Of a DNA stretch of 40,667 bases, positions 1,730 through 8,812 are shown piece after piece. Position numbers and translations under genes: made by a program. The notes below the pieces were generated by a model. The model worked only from the letters and a program-made list of their open reading frames with translations. It made no database searches and was not told the DNA's origin. The stretch comes from Myxococcales bacterium (GTDB taxonomy: Bacteria > Myxococcota > Myxococcia > Myxococcales > Myxococcaceae): assembly GCA_020846875.1 (NCBI GenBank), contig JADLDB010000165.1, positions 1 to 40,667 on the forward strand, read 5' to 3'. Position 1 is the stretch's first letter. Each line of letters starts with the position of its first letter.

Positions 1730-1836
1730 GGTGCGCGGGGGGGATTGAGCCTCGACGCGCGGGAATCGGCTCAGGGGCTGCCGGTTGCCTCCACAGGCCT
1801 TCCGCGCCGGCCCTCAGGTCCGGCAACATCGCGCTC

Positions 1837-2748
1837 ATGCTGCTGGTCTCCCTTCTGCTGTCCGCCGCGCCCTTCACCTTCCCGCCGCCCACTCCGGCCA
1901 GCTTCCCCGAGAGCCTCGCCGCGGCCTGCACCGCCGACGGTACCCACCGGGTGTGCAAGGGCGTGCCGGCGGAGGAGGGCGGCCGCCCCGGGCTGGTGGT
2001 GGACGGCCCCGAGGAGCGCCACGTGGAGTGGGACGCCACCGCGCTGCCCGGCGATCTCGACGACTTCCAGGTGCTGCGCGCCGATCTCGACGGCGACGGC
2101 CACGACGAGCTGCTGGTGGCCAACCGGGCGGCCGAGGCGATCGGCGCGGCGGTGCGGCTGTGGGAGCTGGCGATCGTCGACGGCACCACTGACGAGGTGA
2201 CGCACGCGCTGGTGCATGACTGGGGCCCGGACGCGGTGGACGAGAAGGGCCGGCTGCTCCTCACCGAGTGGGACTGGCGCGACACGGTGGCCGGGGCGAT
2301 GGTCTTCGTGGGCCGCGAGTACACCTTTGGCGGCGGGCGCCTGTGGCCGACGAAGGCGCAGGTCCTGAAGCGCAAGCTGGACGCCGACTTCGAGCTCGAG
2401 CGCGCGCAGGTGCAGGGGCTGTTGTTGGCCCCGCGGCGCTTCCTCTCCCACAAGGCCACGACGCGCACCGCCGACGCGGTGGCGAAGGCGACGGCGAAGG
2501 CCACCGTGCTGGGGGTGAGCCGGGACGAGCCCTACCTCGGCGTCCACCTGCAGCGCGCCGACGGCACGCTGGAGACGCTGTCGGAGACGCCGGACTCGAG
2601 GCCGTTGCTGCGCCTGGGTGACGCGCGCAGCGCGCGGCTTTTCCCCATGGGCTACGCGCCCGCGGCGGCGGAGGAGTGGCTGATGGGCCGGGCGGTGCGG
2701 GTGGCCACCGACGACGCGAAGGTCGTCGGCAGCGTGTGGGTCGACTGA
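1837..2748 (+). CDS. Secreted FG-GAP/VCBS-like protein of unknown function
   Basis: I do not recognise a specific family. The start at ATG 1837 gives 303 residues beginning MLLVSLLLSAAPF, a short hydrophobic signal peptide, so export is likely. Around residues 85-100 there is a segment DLDGDGHDELLVANR, typical of one FG-GAP/VCBS-type calcium-binding blade. A full beta-propeller is not evident, since only one clear repeat is seen. The remainder is Asp/Glu/Arg-rich and soluble-looking. An open frame continues far upstream of 1837, but there it is antisense-like in composition and overlaps the dehydrogenase gene in another frame, so it was not used. The gene lies 107 bases after the dehydrogenase and ends 5 bases before the stop of a convergent gene. 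Confidence 0.7.
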   Translation: MLLVSLLLSAAPFTFPPPTPASFPESLAAACTADGTHRVCKGVPAEEGGRPGLVVDGPEERHVEWDATALPGDLDDFQVLRADLDGDGHDELLVANRAAEAIGAAVRLWELAIVDGTTDEVTHALVHDWGPDAVDEKGRLLLTEWDWRDTVAGAMVFVGREYTFGGGRLWPTKAQVLKRKLDADFELERAQVQGLLLAPRRFLSHKATTRTADAVAKATAKATVLGVSRDEPYLGVHLQRADGTLETLSETPDSRPLLRLGDARSARLFPMGYAPAAAEEWLMGRAVRVATDDAKVVGSVWVD

Positions 2749-2753
2749 AGGCG

Positions 2754-5700
2754 CTACCAGAGCGGGTTCAGATCCACCTTGAAGCCGTAGACCTCGAACT
2801 CGCCGTTGGTGACGCTCTTGAGCCCGCCCCAGGCCTGCTTGGCCACGCTGGCCACCTCGCCGCCGAAGTCGGCCAGCTTCTTCACCGCGTCGGTGGCCAG
2901 CCGGCTGCCCGCCTTGGCCAGGTTGGACAGGCGATCGACGGCGCCCTGCGCCAGCTGCCCGCCGATGGTGGCGAGATCCTTCAGCGCGTCCACGCCGGCG
3001 TCGCCCAGATCCTTCAGGCCGTCCAGCAGCGCCTTGCCGCCTTCGGTCAGGTTCGTCTTCCAGGCCTTCGCCACCTCCTTGAAGGAGGACACGCCGTCGG
3101 TGAGCAGCTCCTTGGCGGTGTTGATGGCCCACTCGGCGCGGCGATCGACGAACTCCTTCACGGCGGTGGCGGCCTTCTTCGCCGCCTCGCCGGTGCCCTT
3201 GGCCAGATCGGTCAGCGTGTCGCCCACCCAGGTGAGCGCCTTCTTGCCGGCCTCGCCCGGGTGCTCGGCGATGTACTTGAGCGTGTCCACCGCTGCCTCG
3301 CCGGCGTTCCTGAGGCCCCGCACCGCGCTCTCGGCGAAGTCGCGCGCCTGGCCGCCCAGCTTCACCACCTCGTCCCAGGTCTTCTTCGCCACCTCACCGC
3401 CCTTGGTGAGCAGCTCGCCGACCTTCTGCTTGGCCAGCTGTCCGACTTCGCCCGGGTGGGTAGCGGCCCAGGCCACCATGTCCACGGCCTTCTCGCCCAG
3501 CTCGACGGCCTTCTTGAGGCCGGCGTCGATCGCCTTGCCCGCGGTGCTGATCAGCTCCTTCGCCTTTTCCCTCGCGGCGCCCTTCAGGGTCTCCCAGCCC
3601 GCCTTCAGGTCGCCCAGCGTCTCCACCGCCTTCTGGTAGAGCGCCTTGCCGCCGGCCTTGGCCAGGTCGATGCCGCCGTCGATCATCGACTTGATCCCGT
3701 CGACGGCGATCTTCGCGGCCTCGCCCGGGTGCTGCGCGATCCAGCTCAGCGTCTTGAGGCCCTTCTCCCCGGCCGCCTTGAGCGAGTCGACCGCGTCGGA
3801 CAGGGCCTGCTTGGCTTCCTTCGCCAGCTCGCCGCCCTTCTGCACCAGGTCGCCGAGCTGCTGCGCGGCGTTCTGCACCAGCTCCTTGGCCTTGGCGCCG
3901 TACTTGGACGGGTTGCGGATCACGTCGGCCAGGGCGTGCATGCCCGCCGCGGTCAGCTTCATCTGCGCGCCCGCGGCGTCGGCCTGGGCCACGCCGGCCA
4001 TCTCGGCCAGCTTGATCGCCCCCTTCGCGCCGGCCTTGGCCAGGTCCTGCACCAGCACCGCCGCGCCTTCCGCCCCGTAGATGCTGGCGAGCTGCGCCAG
4101 GCCGGCCGGGCCCTGCGCCGCCGCCGCGCCCACGTTGACCGCCTTCATCCACATCGGCGCCTTGTAGTTGGTGGGATCCGCCTCGAACTTGGCCTTCTCG
4201 CTGGAGAAGGCGATGTCCATGGCCACCTCCGCCGCGCCCAGGCCGATCTGGATGGGCAGATCGATGTTGCCCACGCCGGTGGCCTCGATCACGCCCAGCA
4301 CCGTGTCAGCGGCGTTCAGGTTTCCGGCGGTCAGCGCGAAGAAGCGCAGATCGGGCGGCAGCTTGGTGTTGGCTGCCTCCATGTACATCTTCGCGGCGTC
4401 GACGCCGGACACCGCGGCGCCCGCGACGGGGATGATCTTCCCGACGCCCTTGAGCAGCTTGAGCGCCGCCTCGCCCGTCATCTTCACGCCCATCTTCTCG
4501 AGCAGCTCCGCGGAGGCCGACAGCGCCTTGCCCACCACCTTGGAGTCGGCCTTCTCGGCCACCTTGAGCAGCTCGCCCACCGCCTTGCCGTCCACCTTGC
4601 CGCCGACCTCGACCAGCCTGGCCAGCGCGTTCTCGTCGAAGCTCTTCACCACCTTGGCCAGGGAGTCCTTGCTCTTCTCCGGCAGCTTGGTGGCGAGCTC
4701 AGCCAGCGCGTCGAGCATGGGCTTGCCGTCCACCGACTTGGCCAGCGCCTTCTGCATCACCTCGCGGTCCAGCCCGCCCAGCGTCTCGAGCAGGGCCTTG
4801 CCGGACTTGCCGTCCATGCCGCCGACCTTGGCGAGGACGGTGTCGAGCTGCTGGGGATCCTGCACCCGCTCGAGGAACCTGGGCAGCACGTCCTTGAGAT
4901 CCTCGCTGGCAGCCAGCTTCTTCACCGTCTCCAACTGAGAGGGCGACAGCCGCTGGGCTGCGTCCGGCGAGAGGCCCTTCACGCCGGTGTCCGCCAGCTT
5001 CGTCGCGTCGGTGGCGATGGTGTCGGCGTTCTTCACGCCCTGGCTCTTGAGGAAGTCGCGGAACGCGGTGACGTCCTTCTTCAGGTCGGGGATCTCGACG
5101 GCCAGTTGGGCGGCGGCGAGCGCCTTGTCCTTGGGCTCGGCCTTCGGGTCGAGCAGCGTCAGCGCGGAGCTGACCGCCTTGAAGGAGCCGTCCAGCTTCC
5201 GCAGGTCATCGGCGATCTTCGGGAACTGCTCCCCGGCGAAGTCCTTCGCCGCCTGGGCGAGCTCGAAGGCCGCCTTGCCCTTGTCCAGCGCCGTCGCCTT
5301 GGGATCGGTGAAGGTGGCGATCGCCCCCACCAGGCCCTGCGCCGCCGGGCCCGCGCCGAGCGCCTTCTTCATGAAGCCCGAGACGTCTTCGGGGGCGAAG
5401 GCCTTACCGGCCGCGCTGGCCAGAGAGATCGCCGCCTTCGTCTTGTCGGCCGCCGTGGCGCTGCTGTCGGCGAGCGTGGACAGCGCCTTGTAGGCGTCCT
5501 TGTCCTGCACCAGCTTGCCGACCTTCGTGTCCTTGAGGCCCACCGTCTCCAGCGCCTTCTCGAGGCCCTTCGGGAAGGCCCCCACCAGCTCGGCGGCGGC
5601 CGAGAGCTGCTCGGAAGGCTTGCCGGTCTTCAGCTTGACCAGGTTGTCGTAGATCTTCTGGAGGTCCTCCTTCTTCTTGCCCTTGAGATCCGGGAAGAGC

Positions 5701-5924
5701 TTCTCCAGGCCCTCGGGAGACTTGGGCAGCGCTCCCGCCTTCACTTGCGCGTAGTCGTCCTTCGGGGCGCTGGCCGTCTTGGCCTTGGCGGCGTCGGCGG
5801 CGCGGCGTGCGGCCTCGGCTTCGGCGGCCTTTCGGGCGGCTTCCTCGGCGGCGCGGCGCTGCTGGGCTTCGATGGCGGCGGCAGACGACGACGACGACGA
5901 GACGTTCGAGGTTCGGCTGGTCAT
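2754..5924 (-). CDS. Giant Ala/Lys-rich helical repeat protein with Ser-run N terminus
   Basis: Unrecognised protein of 1056 residues. The ATG at 5924 is preferred over one at 6017 because it begins MTSRTSNVSSSSSS, a start followed by a Ser run, while the 31 residues before it look non-coding. Visible layout: Ser run (1-15); charged Ala/Arg/Glu helix (15-50); a repeat region (~90-250) in which units with the core DKxKAAxxLAxAA recur; Ala/Leu/Lys helices; a Gly/Ala hydrophobic stretch near residue 495 (IIPVAGAAVSGVDA) followed by further hydrophobic segments to about 570; then a long Ala/Gly/Lys amphipathic region in which an aromatic-containing HPGE motif occurs three times (~731, 822, 884). 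The C terminus is VDLNPLW. No classical signal peptide is seen. The family could be secreted by a non-Sec route or be structural; function is not assigned. The next gene upstream on the same strand encodes a PilZ protein. Confidence 0.82.
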   Translation of the reverse strand: MTSRTSNVSSSSSSAAAIEAQQRRAAEEAARKAAEAEAARRAADAAKAKTASAPKDDYAQVKAGALPKSPEGLEKLFPDLKGKKKEDLQKIYDNLVKLKTGKPSEQLSAAAELVGAFPKGLEKALETVGLKDTKVGKLVQDKDAYKALSTLADSSATAADKTKAAISLASAAGKAFAPEDVSGFMKKALGAGPAAQGLVGAIATFTDPKATALDKGKAAFELAQAAKDFAGEQFPKIADDLRKLDGSFKAVSSALTLLDPKAEPKDKALAAAQLAVEIPDLKKDVTAFRDFLKSQGVKNADTIATDATKLADTGVKGLSPDAAQRLSPSQLETVKKLAASEDLKDVLPRFLERVQDPQQLDTVLAKVGGMDGKSGKALLETLGGLDREVMQKALAKSVDGKPMLDALAELATKLPEKSKDSLAKVVKSFDENALARLVEVGGKVDGKAVGELLKVAEKADSKVVGKALSASAELLEKMGVKMTGEAALKLLKGVGKIIPVAGAAVSGVDAAKMYMEAANTKLPPDLRFFALTAGNLNAADTVLGVIEATGVGNIDLPIQIGLGAAEVAMDIAFSSEKAKFEADPTNYKAPMWMKAVNVGAAAAQGPAGLAQLASIYGAEGAAVLVQDLAKAGAKGAIKLAEMAGVAQADAAGAQMKLTAAGMHALADVIRNPSKYGAKAKELVQNAAQQLGDLVQKGGELAKEAKQALSDAVDSLKAAGEKGLKTLSWIAQHPGEAAKIAVDGIKSMIDGGIDLAKAGGKALYQKAVETLGDLKAGWETLKGAAREKAKELISTAGKAIDAGLKKAVELGEKAVDMVAWAATHPGEVGQLAKQKVGELLTKGGEVAKKTWDEVVKLGGQARDFAESAVRGLRNAGEAAVDTLKYIAEHPGEAGKKALTWVGDTLTDLAKGTGEAAKKAATAVKEFVDRRAEWAINTAKELLTDGVSSFKEVAKAWKTNLTEGGKALLDGLKDLGDAGVDALKDLATIGGQLAQGAVDRLSNLAKAGSRLATDAVKKLADFGGEVASVAKQAWGGLKSVTNGEFEVYGFKVDLNPLW

Positions 5925-6081: not shown

Positions 6082-6843
6082 TCAAAAGGGTTTGCTGGAA
6101 AGAGCTTCGGCCCCGAAGGTGAGGCGGGCGATCCACGGGGGAGCCGGGAGCGCGCGCAGGTTGAGCAGATCGTCCAGCATCTGCTCGCTCTCAGGCGGCA
6201 GGCGGGCGAAGGCCACCCCCAGGCGCAGGGGGATCCCGTCGGTGCGGGTGCCGTTGGTCCACACCACCTCGCCGCCCAGCACCAGGGGGCCGGTGGACAG
6301 CTTCATCCGCAGCAGAAAGGGGACGCCCGGGCGCACGTGCCGGGGCAGCACCTCGCCGTCCACGTCGATGCCCACGCCGCCCAGGCTGATGTCCCGCAGG
6401 CGGAAGATGGCCGAGTCCTGGCGATCTTCCACCGCCCGCACGTGGAGAGGGATGCGCGGGTGCTTGCGCTTCTTGTCCGAGCGGCCAGCGCTGACGATCG
6501 ACTTGAGCACGCTGTCGATGCCCTGGCGGCTCCTCGGCGGCTCGTACCGGATGTGCAGCACGTGGCGGCCGGGGGCGCTCTCGGTGACGGACATCACCGT
6601 GCCGAACACCTCCACCGGATCGCGCACGCCCGCCGAGTGCAGCTCGAAGATGAAGCTGGTGCCCACCGGGAGCGACCTCTTCGACTCGATGCGCACGCCT
6701 CCTCGGCCGACGCTCTTGGTGAGCTCAGCCAGGAGGGCTTCGGGGCTCTTGTACGCCACCCTCAGCCGGACCTGCTTGTTCGCCGCAGTCCCCACCGGAG
6801 GCAGGCTTCCTAGCAGGCTTTCACCGCCCCGGCCGCTGCGCAT
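6082..6843 (-). CDS. Two-PilZ-domain protein
   Basis: Predicted cytosolic cyclic-di-GMP responsive protein of 253 residues with two PilZ-type domains. The first (about residues 22-105) has the fold-like pattern TKSVGRGGVRI but lacks a clear RxxxR. The second (about 123-225) has both c-di-GMP binding signatures: RKHPR (R126-R130) and DISLGG (151-156). Binding by the second domain is therefore expected from the family and is not shown here. ATG 6843 is chosen because the 39 extra residues possible upstream look non-coding and run into the mraZ promoter region; GGGTGAA precedes this ATG. It is divergent from mraZ and separated by 158 bases, so the two may share a regulatory region. The downstream effector or partner is unknown. 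Confidence 0.82.
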   Translation of the reverse strand: MRSGRGGESLLGSLPPVGTAANKQVRLRVAYKSPEALLAELTKSVGRGGVRIESKRSLPVGTSFIFELHSAGVRDPVEVFGTVMSVTESAPGRHVLHIRYEPPRSRQGIDSVLKSIVSAGRSDKKRKHPRIPLHVRAVEDRQDSAIFRLRDISLGGVGIDVDGEVLPRHVRPGVPFLLRMKLSTGPLVLGGEVVWTNGTRTDGIPLRLGVAFARLPPESEQMLDDLLNLRALPAPPWIARLTFGAEALSSKPF

Positions 6844-6894
6844 TTCACCCACATCACAATCGTCGCCGATCGCGCGCCGCCGCCCCGGCCTTTC

Positions 6895-6923
6895 TTGACC
6901 CCCCGTGATTCCGACCCTATTTT
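6895..6923 (+). promoter_or_regulatory. Candidate sigma70 promoter of the dcw cluster
   Basis: TTGACC (6895-6900) and TATTTT (6918-6923) are separated by exactly 17 bases, close to the housekeeping consensus. Transcription would begin near 6930, just before the MraZ boxes and about 70 bases upstream of mraZ. This is the best promoter-like sequence seen ahead of the 18-kb cluster. The start point is inferred. Confidence 0.65.
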
Positions 6924-6931
6924 CCGGCCTG

Positions 6932-6956
6932 GTGGTAGGGAGTGGTAACTGGCGGA
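6932..6956 (+). promoter_or_regulatory. MraZ operator: three phased direct repeats
   Basis: Three pentamers are spaced exactly 10 bases apart: GTGGT (6932-6936), GTGGT (6942-6946) and GCGGA (6952-6956). This matches the known mode of MraZ binding, in which direct G-rich repeats separated by 5 bases lie upstream of mraZ. They fall immediately after the predicted transcription start, so bound MraZ would block the dcw promoter. The third box is degenerate. Confidence 0.7.
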
Positions 6957-7001
6957 TCAAATTCCCTCGCAGCGGCGGATCAGGGCAGCAGGCGGTGAAA
7001 C

Positions 7002-7454
7002 GTGTTCCGGGGCGTCTTCGAGCATCAGATCGACGCGAAGGGGCGAACGAGCTTCCCGGTGAAGCTGCGTGAGACCCTGGTGGGGCAGTACGACGATCGG
7101 TTGATCGTCACCACGGCCCTCGACGCCTGCCTGCACGCGTACCCGGTGCGGGAGTGGGAGCAACTGGAGGCGGCGCTGGGGCGGCGCAACCCGATGGAGC
7201 CAGGGGTCAAGTCGCTGCTGCGGCTGTACGTGGCGAGCGCGCAGGAGCTGCAGCTGGACAAGCTCGGGCGGATCCTGATCCCGCCCACGCTGCGGGCCCA
7301 CGCCCACCTGGAGAAGGACGTGATCTGGGCGGGGATGGTGAAGGTGATCGAGCTCTGGTCGAAGGACGGCTGGCAGAAGGCGCAGGAAGCGGCGCGCACC
7401 GAGGCGGACTCGGCCGACGTGATGCGCGTGTTGACGGAATTGCGGGCGGGCTGA
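7002..7454 (+). CDS. mraZ: Transcriptional regulator MraZ
   Basis: MraZ is a DNA-binding protein of the AbrB superfamily that forms ring-like oligomers and, in E. coli, represses the dcw operon by binding repeats upstream of its own gene. The 150-residue product has the expected two tandem SpoVT/AbrB-type half domains, each with the conserved DxxGR signature: DAKGR at 11-15 and DKLGR at 85-89. The start is GTG 7002, preceded by GGCGGTGAAAC; the sequence [11 protein letters not shown] matches the family N terminus. It is the first gene of the cluster, and the boxes at 6932-6956 make autoregulation likely. The STAS gene follows after 55 bases. Confidence 0.96.
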
Positions 7455-7509: not shown

Positions 7510-7902
7510 GTGAGCGAGCTGGTGGAACCGGAAGTGGTGCACGAGGCGCGGCGCGCTACAGCCACATCGCGCGTCATGACGATGGTCCTCGAGGGAGAGA
7601 TCGGCCTGGACGAGATGAACGACGTCACCGCCATGCTGCTCCGCCTGGCCCGCAACGGCGTCAGCCGGGTGGTGATCGACTTCTGCGAGGTGTCGCACTT
7701 CGACTACCGGGGGGTGAGGACCCTGGTGCGGCACGCCGACGCCTTCCGCCAGCAGGGCGGTGATCTGCGGCTCTCGGGCCTGTCGCCGTACGTGTTCGCG
7801 ATCTTCCGCAGCGCGGGCGCGCACGACGCCTTCGACTACTTCGCCGACCTTGGGGATGCGCGGCGCTCCTTCGAGCGGGCCGTGCTGACGCAGGCCGGGT
7901 GA
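7510..7902 (+). CDS. STAS-domain protein (anti-sigma antagonist-like)
   Basis: A 130-residue single-domain STAS protein. The family includes SpoIIAA/RsbV antagonists, which bind anti-sigma kinases and are switched by Ser phosphorylation. Visible core: an N-terminal strand ending in [14 protein letters not shown], then [18 protein letters not shown] around residues 51-68. At the position of the usual phospho-Ser the sequence reads D65-Y66-R67-G68, so the regulatory Ser is absent and classical phospho-switching is unlikely. GTG 7510 is preceded by GAGGG. It sits between mraZ and rsmH, co-directional, and its stop is followed at once by rsmH. No anti-sigma kinase is seen in the window. A role in division or in localising partners can only be guessed. 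Confidence 0.83.
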
Positions 7903-7945: not shown

Positions 7946-8812
7946 GTGGACCTGCTTGAACCCCGGGAGGGGCGCGTGATCGTCGACGGAACGCTGGGCG
8001 GTGGAGGTCACTCGGAGGCGCTGCTTGCGCGCGGCGCCAGCGTGGTGGGCCTGGACCGCGATCCGTCGGCCCTCGAGGCGGCGTCCACCCGGCTGGCGCG
8101 CTTCGGGCCCCGCTTCCGCCCGGTGCAGGGCCGCTTCGGCGACGTGCTGGCCCTGGTGGACGGCCCGGTGGACGGCTTCCTCCTCGATCTCGGCGTCTCC
8201 AGCCCGCAGCTCGACACCGCCTCGCGCGGCTTCTCTTTTCAGCACGACGGACCGCTGGACATGCGCATGGGGCGGGAAGGAGAGACGGCCGCGGAGCTGA
8301 TCGCCCGCGTGGGTGAGCGAGAGCTGGCGGACTTGATCTACGAATTGGGGGAGGAGCGCTTCTCCCGTCCCATCGCCCGTCTGCTCAAGGCGCGGGCGCC
8401 GAAGCGCACGCACGAGGCGGTGGAGGCGGTCAAGGCGGCGGTGCCGCGCAAGGCCTGGCCCAGAGAGCTCCACGTGGCCACCCGCACCTTCCAGGCCCTG
8501 CGGCTGGCGGTGAACGACGAGCTGGGCGAGCTGGACCGCGCGCTCGCGGCGATCCCCGGGCTGCTCGCCCCCGGTGGCCGGGCCGCGATCATCAGCTTTC
8601 ACTCGCTGGAGGATCGCCGGGTGAAGCAGGCGTTTCGCGCCCTGTGCGGCGAGGCCCCGGACGAGCTGCCGCGCGGGCTGCCGGTGCAGCGCGAGCAGCG
8701 CGCCGACTTTGTGGCCCTGACGAAGAAGCCGGTGATCGCAACCGGCGAAGAGGTGGCGAACAACCCCAGATCCCGCAGCGCGAAGCTGCGGGCCGTGGAG
8801 AAGAAGTCATGA
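7946..8812 (+). CDS. rsmH: 16S rRNA (cytosine1402-N4)-methyltransferase RsmH
   Basis: RsmH (MraW) methylates N4 of C1402 in the 16S rRNA P-site using S-adenosylmethionine. The SAM loop [14 protein letters not shown] starts at residue 14. [27 protein letters not shown] and [15 protein letters not shown] are all family signatures. The annotated GTG 7946 is the first canonical start codon, but the conserved family segment before it ([10 protein letters not shown]) is encoded in frame from about 7919. Between the in-frame stop at 7886 and GTG 7946 there is no ATG, GTG or TTG; ATC 7907 is the only near-cognate candidate. The real N terminus is therefore probably about 13 residues longer. The end overlaps ftsL by an ATGA. 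Confidence 0.95.

What the first reader, a model, noticed from the sequence alone, without database searches (positions are those of the whole stretch)
2754..5924. Giant Ser-start, Ala/Lys-rich repeat protein with no assignable family
A 1056-residue protein begins with a Ser run followed by a charged Ala helix, then DKxKAAxxLA-type repeats and amphipathic regions. No signal peptide or catalytic motif is visible. The size, the architecture and a neighbour with a PilZ domain suggest an exported or contact-related protein of a new kind. That is an inference; a structural or scaffold role is equally possible.
Basis: partly seen in the sequence, partly recalled or inferred. Interest (0 to 1): 0.6.

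Follow-up and report, generated by a model that had tools for sequence, protein, structure and literature searches.

The report
Modular effector-like giant protein of myxobacteria

Summary
The ORF is real: window 2754-5924, minus strand, 1056 aa. It matches no Pfam, NCBIfam, PHROGs or solved-structure family. It is conserved full length at 47-52% identity, but only in Myxococcaceae (39 of 96 genomes).

Its parts are: a Ser-rich non-Sec N-terminus; an Ala/Arg/Glu helix; a 573-residue all-alpha domain (AlphaFold2 pLDDT 83, no known fold) that ends in a hydrophobic helical hairpin; and a 360-residue amphipathic helix with one unbroken period of 3.64 residues.

The N-terminus is shared with a second Myxococcaceae family, "NCLD", which carries an invariant Cys-His-Asp domain and very variable C-termini: annexin repeats, a calpain protease, and a full-length XopAJ/AvrRxo1 toxin. 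Two proteins join the NCLD domain and this protein's own core in one chain. So the protein belongs to a modular, polymorphic-effector-like class of predatory bacteria.

Every carrier genome has a type III export gate. T6SS is absent from the protein's own genome, which excludes that route there. I propose a membrane-acting effector exported without a Sec signal. Secretion, route and toxicity are all unproven. An intracellular membrane scaffold is the main rival.

The parts
2754..5924 (-). Whole gene, 1056 aa, plus stop codon
5874..5924 (-). Residues 1-17: Ser/Thr-rich disordered start, no Sec signal (10 of the first 25 residues are Ser or Thr)
   Evidence: pLDDT about 32-42
5775..5873 (-). Residues 18-50: Ala/Arg/Lys/Glu helix, the module shared with the NCLD family
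5736..5774 (-). Residues 51-63: linker carrying a degenerate form (KDDYA) of the [RK]D-x-[FYL] box seen in homologues and in NCLD-family proteins
   Evidence: direct reading; regular-expression test only suggestive
4440..5735 (-). Residues 64-495: folded all-alpha domain; DKxKAAxxLA-type repeats at 160, 214 and 266
   Evidence: (model of residues 62-634, mean pLDDT 83.1)
4029..4475 (-). Residues 484-632: most conserved core with hydrophobic helical hairpin (helices about 524-548 and 556-582) and motif Y-x-AP-x-W-[MV]-K
   Evidence: residues 320-632 found fused to the NCLD domain in L129/L137
2817..3899 (-). Residues 676-1036: single-phase amphipathic helix about 360 residues long, period 3.64, no charge within 30 degrees of the centre of the apolar face
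2757..2816 (-). Residues 1037-1056: short C-terminal cap (EVYGFKVDLNPLW), low confidence
6082..6960 (-). Upstream same-strand gene with TIGR02266-like and PilZ domains; its link to the finding is not supported

Best explanation
Shown: the protein belongs to a Myxococcaceae-restricted modular class defined by a Ser-rich, non-Sec start followed by an Ala/Arg/Glu helix. In related chains this module is followed by a Cys-His-Asp ('NCLD') domain and by very different C-terminal bodies, including annexin repeats, calpain protease and XopAJ/AvrRxo1-type toxin. The core of this protein occurs behind the NCLD domain in two chains. Inferred: the class is a set of effectors used in predation or antagonism, and the N-terminal module is their export or sorting tag. 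Inferred: this member has no enzyme tip and acts on membranes. Its folded alpha domain would deliver a hydrophobic hairpin into the target bilayer, while the 360-residue amphipathic helix lies on or disorders the membrane surface. Inferred and least certain: export runs through the myxobacterial type III-like system (T3SS*) with the Kil pilus, whose effectors are still unknown (PMC10433427, PMC12075869).
For: Full-length conservation in 39 of 96 Myxococcaceae genomes (a few of the 39 are divergent or partial copies). The N-terminal helix rule is met by 26 of 32 members of this family, 15 of 29 NCLD proteins and 2 of 2 chains with both, against 3 of 854 other genes, none of them at a true N-terminus (Fisher p about 1e-54; rows are related and two seeds were found by the tag, so p is only indicative). 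L129 and L137 join tag, NCLD domain and this protein's core (hhalign probability 100, E 1.7e-63). NCLD bodies: annexin 1.7e-46, calpain 4.9e-28, XopAJ/AvrRxo1 421 bits over a cut-off of 300 at residues 948-1271 of 1275. Cys, His and Asp are invariant in the NCLD domain. The amphipathic tail is shown. The gene next to it in eight Corallococcus loci encodes a transglycosylase that starts with a Ser/Thr-rich segment and no signal peptide (SLT and PG_binding_1 domains checked in one of them). A T3SS export gate is present in every carrier genome.
Against: This member has no recognisable toxin domain and no conserved neighbour that could be an immunity gene. No 19-residue window passes mean hydropathy 1.6; the maximum is 1.42, so a classical transmembrane hairpin is not predicted. 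The T3SS gate is in 94 of 96 Myxococcaceae, so co-occurrence barely discriminates. None of its genes was found beside the type III loci. About half of NCLD proteins do not meet the helix rule. Secretion was not measured.
Confidence: 0.45

Rival explanations
1. Intracellular membrane scaffold or stress protein. The long amphipathic helix coats the inner membrane or lipid bodies, in the way perilipins or LEA proteins do, and the N-terminal helix is only a coiled-coil or solubility tag.
For: Single-phase amphipathic helix of 360 residues with period 3.64, no charge near the centre of the apolar face, acidic residues at the centre of the polar face and basic ones more evenly spread. No enzyme, no toxin domain, no immunity gene. 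Myxobacteria make lipid bodies during development (own knowledge).
Against: The N-terminus is shared with chains that carry toxin and protease tips. No match to perilipin, apolipoprotein or LEA models in Pfam. Patchy distribution, and the copy in G086 is broken into frames.
Confidence: 0.25
2. Delivery component rather than effector: a pore-forming translocator for the NCLD class, or for the needleless T3SS, which is described as lacking a translocon (PMC12075869).
For: Architecture of disordered start, Ala-rich coil, hydrophobic helical hairpin and C-terminal amphipathic helix resembles T3SS translocators in outline (own knowledge, not tested).
Against: Absent from more than half of the genomes that have the T3SS gate (39 carriers against 94), and only 19 genomes carry both this family and the NCLD family. 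No sequence or fold match to a translocator.
Confidence: 0.08
3. T6SS cargo effector.
For: T6SS is common in the family (65 of 96 genomes).
Against: TssK is absent from the window's own genome and from seven other carrier genomes. No PAAR, VgrG or similar domain.
Confidence: 0.02
4. Phage tail tape-measure or tailocin remnant.
For: The top viral fold matches are tape-measure proteins (best E 7.7e-5).
Against: TM-scores of 0.13 or below and rmsd of 24 angstroms or more mean only shared long helices. No phage genes nearby. No match in phages or IMG/VR.
Confidence: 0.01
5. Secreted surface or matrix adhesin, structural rather than toxic.
For: Large repetitive helical protein without catalytic motifs in a social gliding bacterium.
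Against: No signal peptide, surface anchor or adhesin domain; shares its N-terminus with toxin-tipped and protease-tipped chains.
Confidence: 0.1

Closest known systems
Polymorphic toxin systems (Zhang et al. 2012, cited in PMC3894181) and myxobacterial SitA toxins (PMC10433427)
   Same: One conserved N-terminal module on chains with exchangeable C-terminal bodies, some of them toxins.
   Different: No Sec or lipoprotein signal, no Rhs or PAAR domain, no conserved immunity gene; this member has no toxin tip; the NCLD domain and the Ala-helix tag have no Pfam family.
Bacterial annexin-toxin fusions (PMC3894181; includes Corallococcus coralloides and Myxococcus stipitatus annexins)
   Same: Annexin repeats with toxin or protease domains occur in the related NCLD proteins.
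   Different: The passages read do not mention the N-terminal tag or the NCLD domain; the protein in question has no annexin repeat.
AvrRxo1/XopAJ zeta-toxin family (PMC4938570; myxobacterial homologues known)
   Same: One NCLD-class protein (L182) ends in a complete domain of this family.
   Different: The domain sits at the end of a 1275-aa chain behind NCLD domain and annexin repeats; the protein in question has none.
Perilipin, apolipoprotein and other long amphipathic-helix proteins
   Same: Long lipid-binding-type amphipathic helix.
   Different: 360 residues in one phase, attached to a folded alpha domain; no Pfam match.

Membership tests
Polymorphic toxin | Conserved N-terminal trafficking module on otherwise unrelated bodies | tested here: met
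   shared module; bodies not homologous except L129/L137. That the module serves trafficking is inferred, not tested
Polymorphic toxin | C-terminal toxin domain in this protein | tested here: not met
   none found (a relative has one)
Polymorphic toxin | Adjacent immunity gene | tested here: not met
   no neighbour conserved across genera
Type III secretion effector | Non-Sec, Ser-rich disordered N-terminus and type III export gate in every carrier genome | tested here: met
   weak evidence because 94 of 96 genomes have the gate
Type III secretion effector | Type III-dependent translocation | not testable with these tools
   needs a secretion assay
T6SS effector | T6SS in the same genome | tested here: not met
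   TssK absent from G000 and seven other carriers
ZorA (anti-phage Zorya) | MotA/ExbB-type membrane domain | tested here: not met
   PADLOC E 9e-6, but only residues 680-1017 against profile positions 303-565 of 699, with no MotA/TolQ region; NCBIfam ZorA 12 bits against a cut-off of 100
Phage tape measure | Located in a phage tail gene cluster | tested here: not met
Perilipin/apolipoprotein/LEA | Match to the family's profile | tested here: not met
   no Pfam match; helix type similar
T3SS translocator (IpaB/YopB type) | Homologous fold | tested here: inconclusive
   no match with Z of 8 or more for any fold
NCLD class | Cys-His-Asp NCLD domain in this protein | tested here: not met
   no NCLD motif in P0001, which has no Cys at all; present in L129/L137, which carry the same core

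The most novel reading that the evidence does not exclude
The Ser-start, Ala-helix N-terminus is a new export tag that marks the missing effectors of the myxobacterial Kil/needleless T3SS* predation machine, and this 1056-aa protein is its membrane-permeabilising (or translocon-like) effector.
Probability: 0.2. Interest if true: 0.85.

Novelty: new variant of a known kind. Interest (0 to 1): 0.58.

Why it matters
Reviews and a 2025 study state that the effectors of the Kil/T3SS* predation machinery of myxobacteria are unknown (PMC10433427, PMC12075869). A rare, recognisable N-terminal module that joins toxin-tipped, protease-tipped, annexin-bearing and membrane-type bodies gives a concrete list of candidates, more than 100 NCLD proteins and about 40 of this family in 96 genomes, and a tag that can be tested directly. 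It also fills in a large family of conserved myxobacterial proteins that carries no annotation.

Tried and rejected
Pfam, NCBIfam, PHROGs, PADLOC and PDB sequence searches gave nothing assignable; the ZorA and BurrH hits are weak, and I read them as composition artefacts. Fold searches with two models gave no E at or below 0.001 in PDB, Z at most 7.4 to designed helical repeats, and only long-helix tape-measure matches in BFVD; this does not prove a new fold. IMG/VR, phage and plasmid searches: no relative. Profile search over the phylum failed twice on the server, so the range beyond Myxococcaceae rests on a sample of 24 same-order genomes with no hit and the species-wide pattern scan. First DNA pattern for the tag was too strict. 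The box motif after the helix (F-x...-LDG) was tested by regular expression: 19 of 63 against 49 of 854, with many background and out-of-place matches, so I treat it as suggestive only. hhalign between this protein's core and the other NCLD bodies: no relation.

Full report
OBSERVATION. The ORF at 2754-5924 (minus) is real: 1056 aa, GC3 95%, with relatives in 16 named Myxococcaceae loci (Corallococcus, Archangium, Hyalangium and unnamed Myxococcaceae MAGs), most of them full length at 47-51% identity. In whole-genome searches it is in 39 of 96 Myxococcaceae genomes, including all sampled genomes of genus g26, and in none of 24 same-order genomes outside the family. The PilZ neighbour is real but not a conserved neighbour.

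NO KNOWN FAMILY. Pfam, NCBIfam, PHROGs and PDB sequence searches give nothing assignable. The PADLOC ZorA1 match (9e-6, residues 680-1017) covers only profile positions 303-565 of 699, without the MotA region, and is read as composition. AlphaFold2 with 17 homologues: residues 62-634 fold as an all-alpha domain of mean pLDDT 83; the C-terminal third is helix of low confidence. Foldseek finds no PDB match at E 0.001; VIA Z is at most 7.4, to designed repeats; viral matches are long-helix tape measures with TM 0.13 or below.

ANATOMY. Residues 1-17 are Ser-rich and disordered. Residues 11-50 form one helix. Residues 64-495 are alpha repeats. Residues 484-632 are the most conserved part and hold a hydrophobic helical hairpin; maximum Kyte-Doolittle mean is 1.42 over 19 residues, below the usual transmembrane threshold. 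Residues 676-1036 form an amphipathic helix that keeps a single phase for 361 residues: power 53 at period 3.64 against a shuffled maximum of 7.5, and the same 3.64 in all 15 homologues tested. No charged residue falls within 30 degrees of the apolar centre and only four within 60; acidic residues concentrate at the centre of the polar face. That is the pattern of membrane-surface helices (inference), though alpha bundles could also show it.

A MODULAR CLASS. Searching the own genome with the N-terminus led to two other large proteins with the same start. Their common body contains a domain I call NCLD: N-C-L...G-H...D-P, with Cys, His and Asp invariant in the 22 sequences collected (the regular expression that collected them required part of this motif, so the invariance is partly built in, but A5 also shows the Asp and flanking residues invariant; one of the two seeds, L055, has lost the Cys). 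It has no Pfam or PDB match, and a cysteine-peptidase role is an inference. Searched by this body, the NCLD family has more than 100 members in 43 of 96 Myxococcaceae genomes, with open frames from about 250 to 2600 codons. Their C-termini differ: annexin repeats (8 of 26 scanned), calpain protease, a peptidoglycan-binding domain in one chain, and one complete XopAJ/AvrRxo1 zeta-toxin domain at residues 948-1271 of 1275 in L182. L182 itself has a Pro/Ala-rich linker instead of the Ala helix, so the toxin is tied to this protein through the NCLD domain, not through the helix directly. Two proteins, L129 (1169 aa) and L137 (1143 aa), carry the N-terminal helix, the NCLD domain and then this protein's own core (residues 320-632; hhalign 100%, E 1.7e-63), while other NCLD bodies are unrelated to it. 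The N-terminal helix rule holds in 26 of 32 members of this family, 15 of 29 NCLD proteins and both joined chains, against 3 of 854 other genes, none truly N-terminal (Fisher about 1e-54). Related sequences are not independent, and two NCLD seeds were found through the tag; without them it is 13 of 27.

CONTEXT. The gene sits at different places in different genera and at the same place in most Corallococcus. There, in eight loci, the next gene on the same strand encodes a Ser/Thr/Asn-rich-start protein without a signal peptide; the one scanned has SLT transglycosylase and PG-binding domains. No neighbour is conserved across genera, so there is no obvious immunity gene. The copy in G086 is broken into frames.

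SECRETION ROUTES. The type III gate protein (PF00771) is in 94 of 96 genomes; the two that lack it (G020, G024) have neither family. TssK of T6SS is absent from the own genome and from seven other carriers, so T6SS is not the route there. The Kil/T3SS* system is described as required for contact killing and prey lysis, with unknown effectors and without secretin, needle or translocon (PMC12075869; PMC10433427). Bacterial annexins with toxin domains, including Corallococcus annexins, were noted before (PMC3894181), and myxobacterial AvrRxo1 homologues are known (PMC4938570). Neither paper, in the passages read, describes the tag, the NCLD domain or this protein.

JUDGEMENT. That the protein belongs to a modular class sharing an N-terminal module is about 0.85 likely. 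That the class is exported and acts as effectors is about 0.5. That this member acts on membranes through hairpin and amphipathic helix, given export, is about 0.6. That the route is T3SS*/Kil is about 0.25. The chief rival is an intracellular membrane or lipid-body scaffold (0.25).

Noticed in passing
L182:4691-8515 (minus): A 1275-aa NCLD-class protein ends in a full-length XopAJ/AvrRxo1 zeta-toxin domain behind annexin repeats.
   Followed up: partly
L146:6527-8467 (same gene as L101): A chain with NCLD, annexin repeats and a calpain-family protease in one bacterial protein.
   Followed up: partly
L143:775-4299: The C-terminus of this annexin-bearing NCLD protein contains SGHG and DACH, reminiscent of caspase-like peptidases; no profile match was found.
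   Followed up: no
L180, L181, L182, gene just upstream of the annexin-type NCLD gene: A conserved same-strand gene of 267-289 aa precedes annexin-type NCLD genes in three loci; possible partner or chaperone.
   Followed up: no
L018:12057-13661 and equivalents in L026, L028, L031, L032, L035, L036, L037: Transglycosylase (SLT plus PG_binding_1, checked in L018) without signal peptide directly downstream of the Corallococcus homologues; the L037 copy contains a DTFEPAG box like that of the NCLD proteins.
   Followed up: partly
L128:2980-8475: An 1832-aa chain starts with a long AARRAAEEAARR helix and ends in a divergent copy of this protein's core plus about 130 unrelated residues.
   Followed up: no
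L138:6397-8893: The homologue in G086 is split over several frames, as in a pseudogene.
   Followed up: no
window 7510-7902 (+): A small ORF that reads like a STAS or anti-sigma-antagonist domain lies between mraZ (7002-7454) and rsmH (7946-8812) in the division and cell-wall cluster; not checked by a profile search.
   Followed up: no
window 1771-2748 (+): A 325-residue stretch with weak FG-GAP repeat similarity next to the finding, convergent with it; no family above its cut-off.
   Followed up: no
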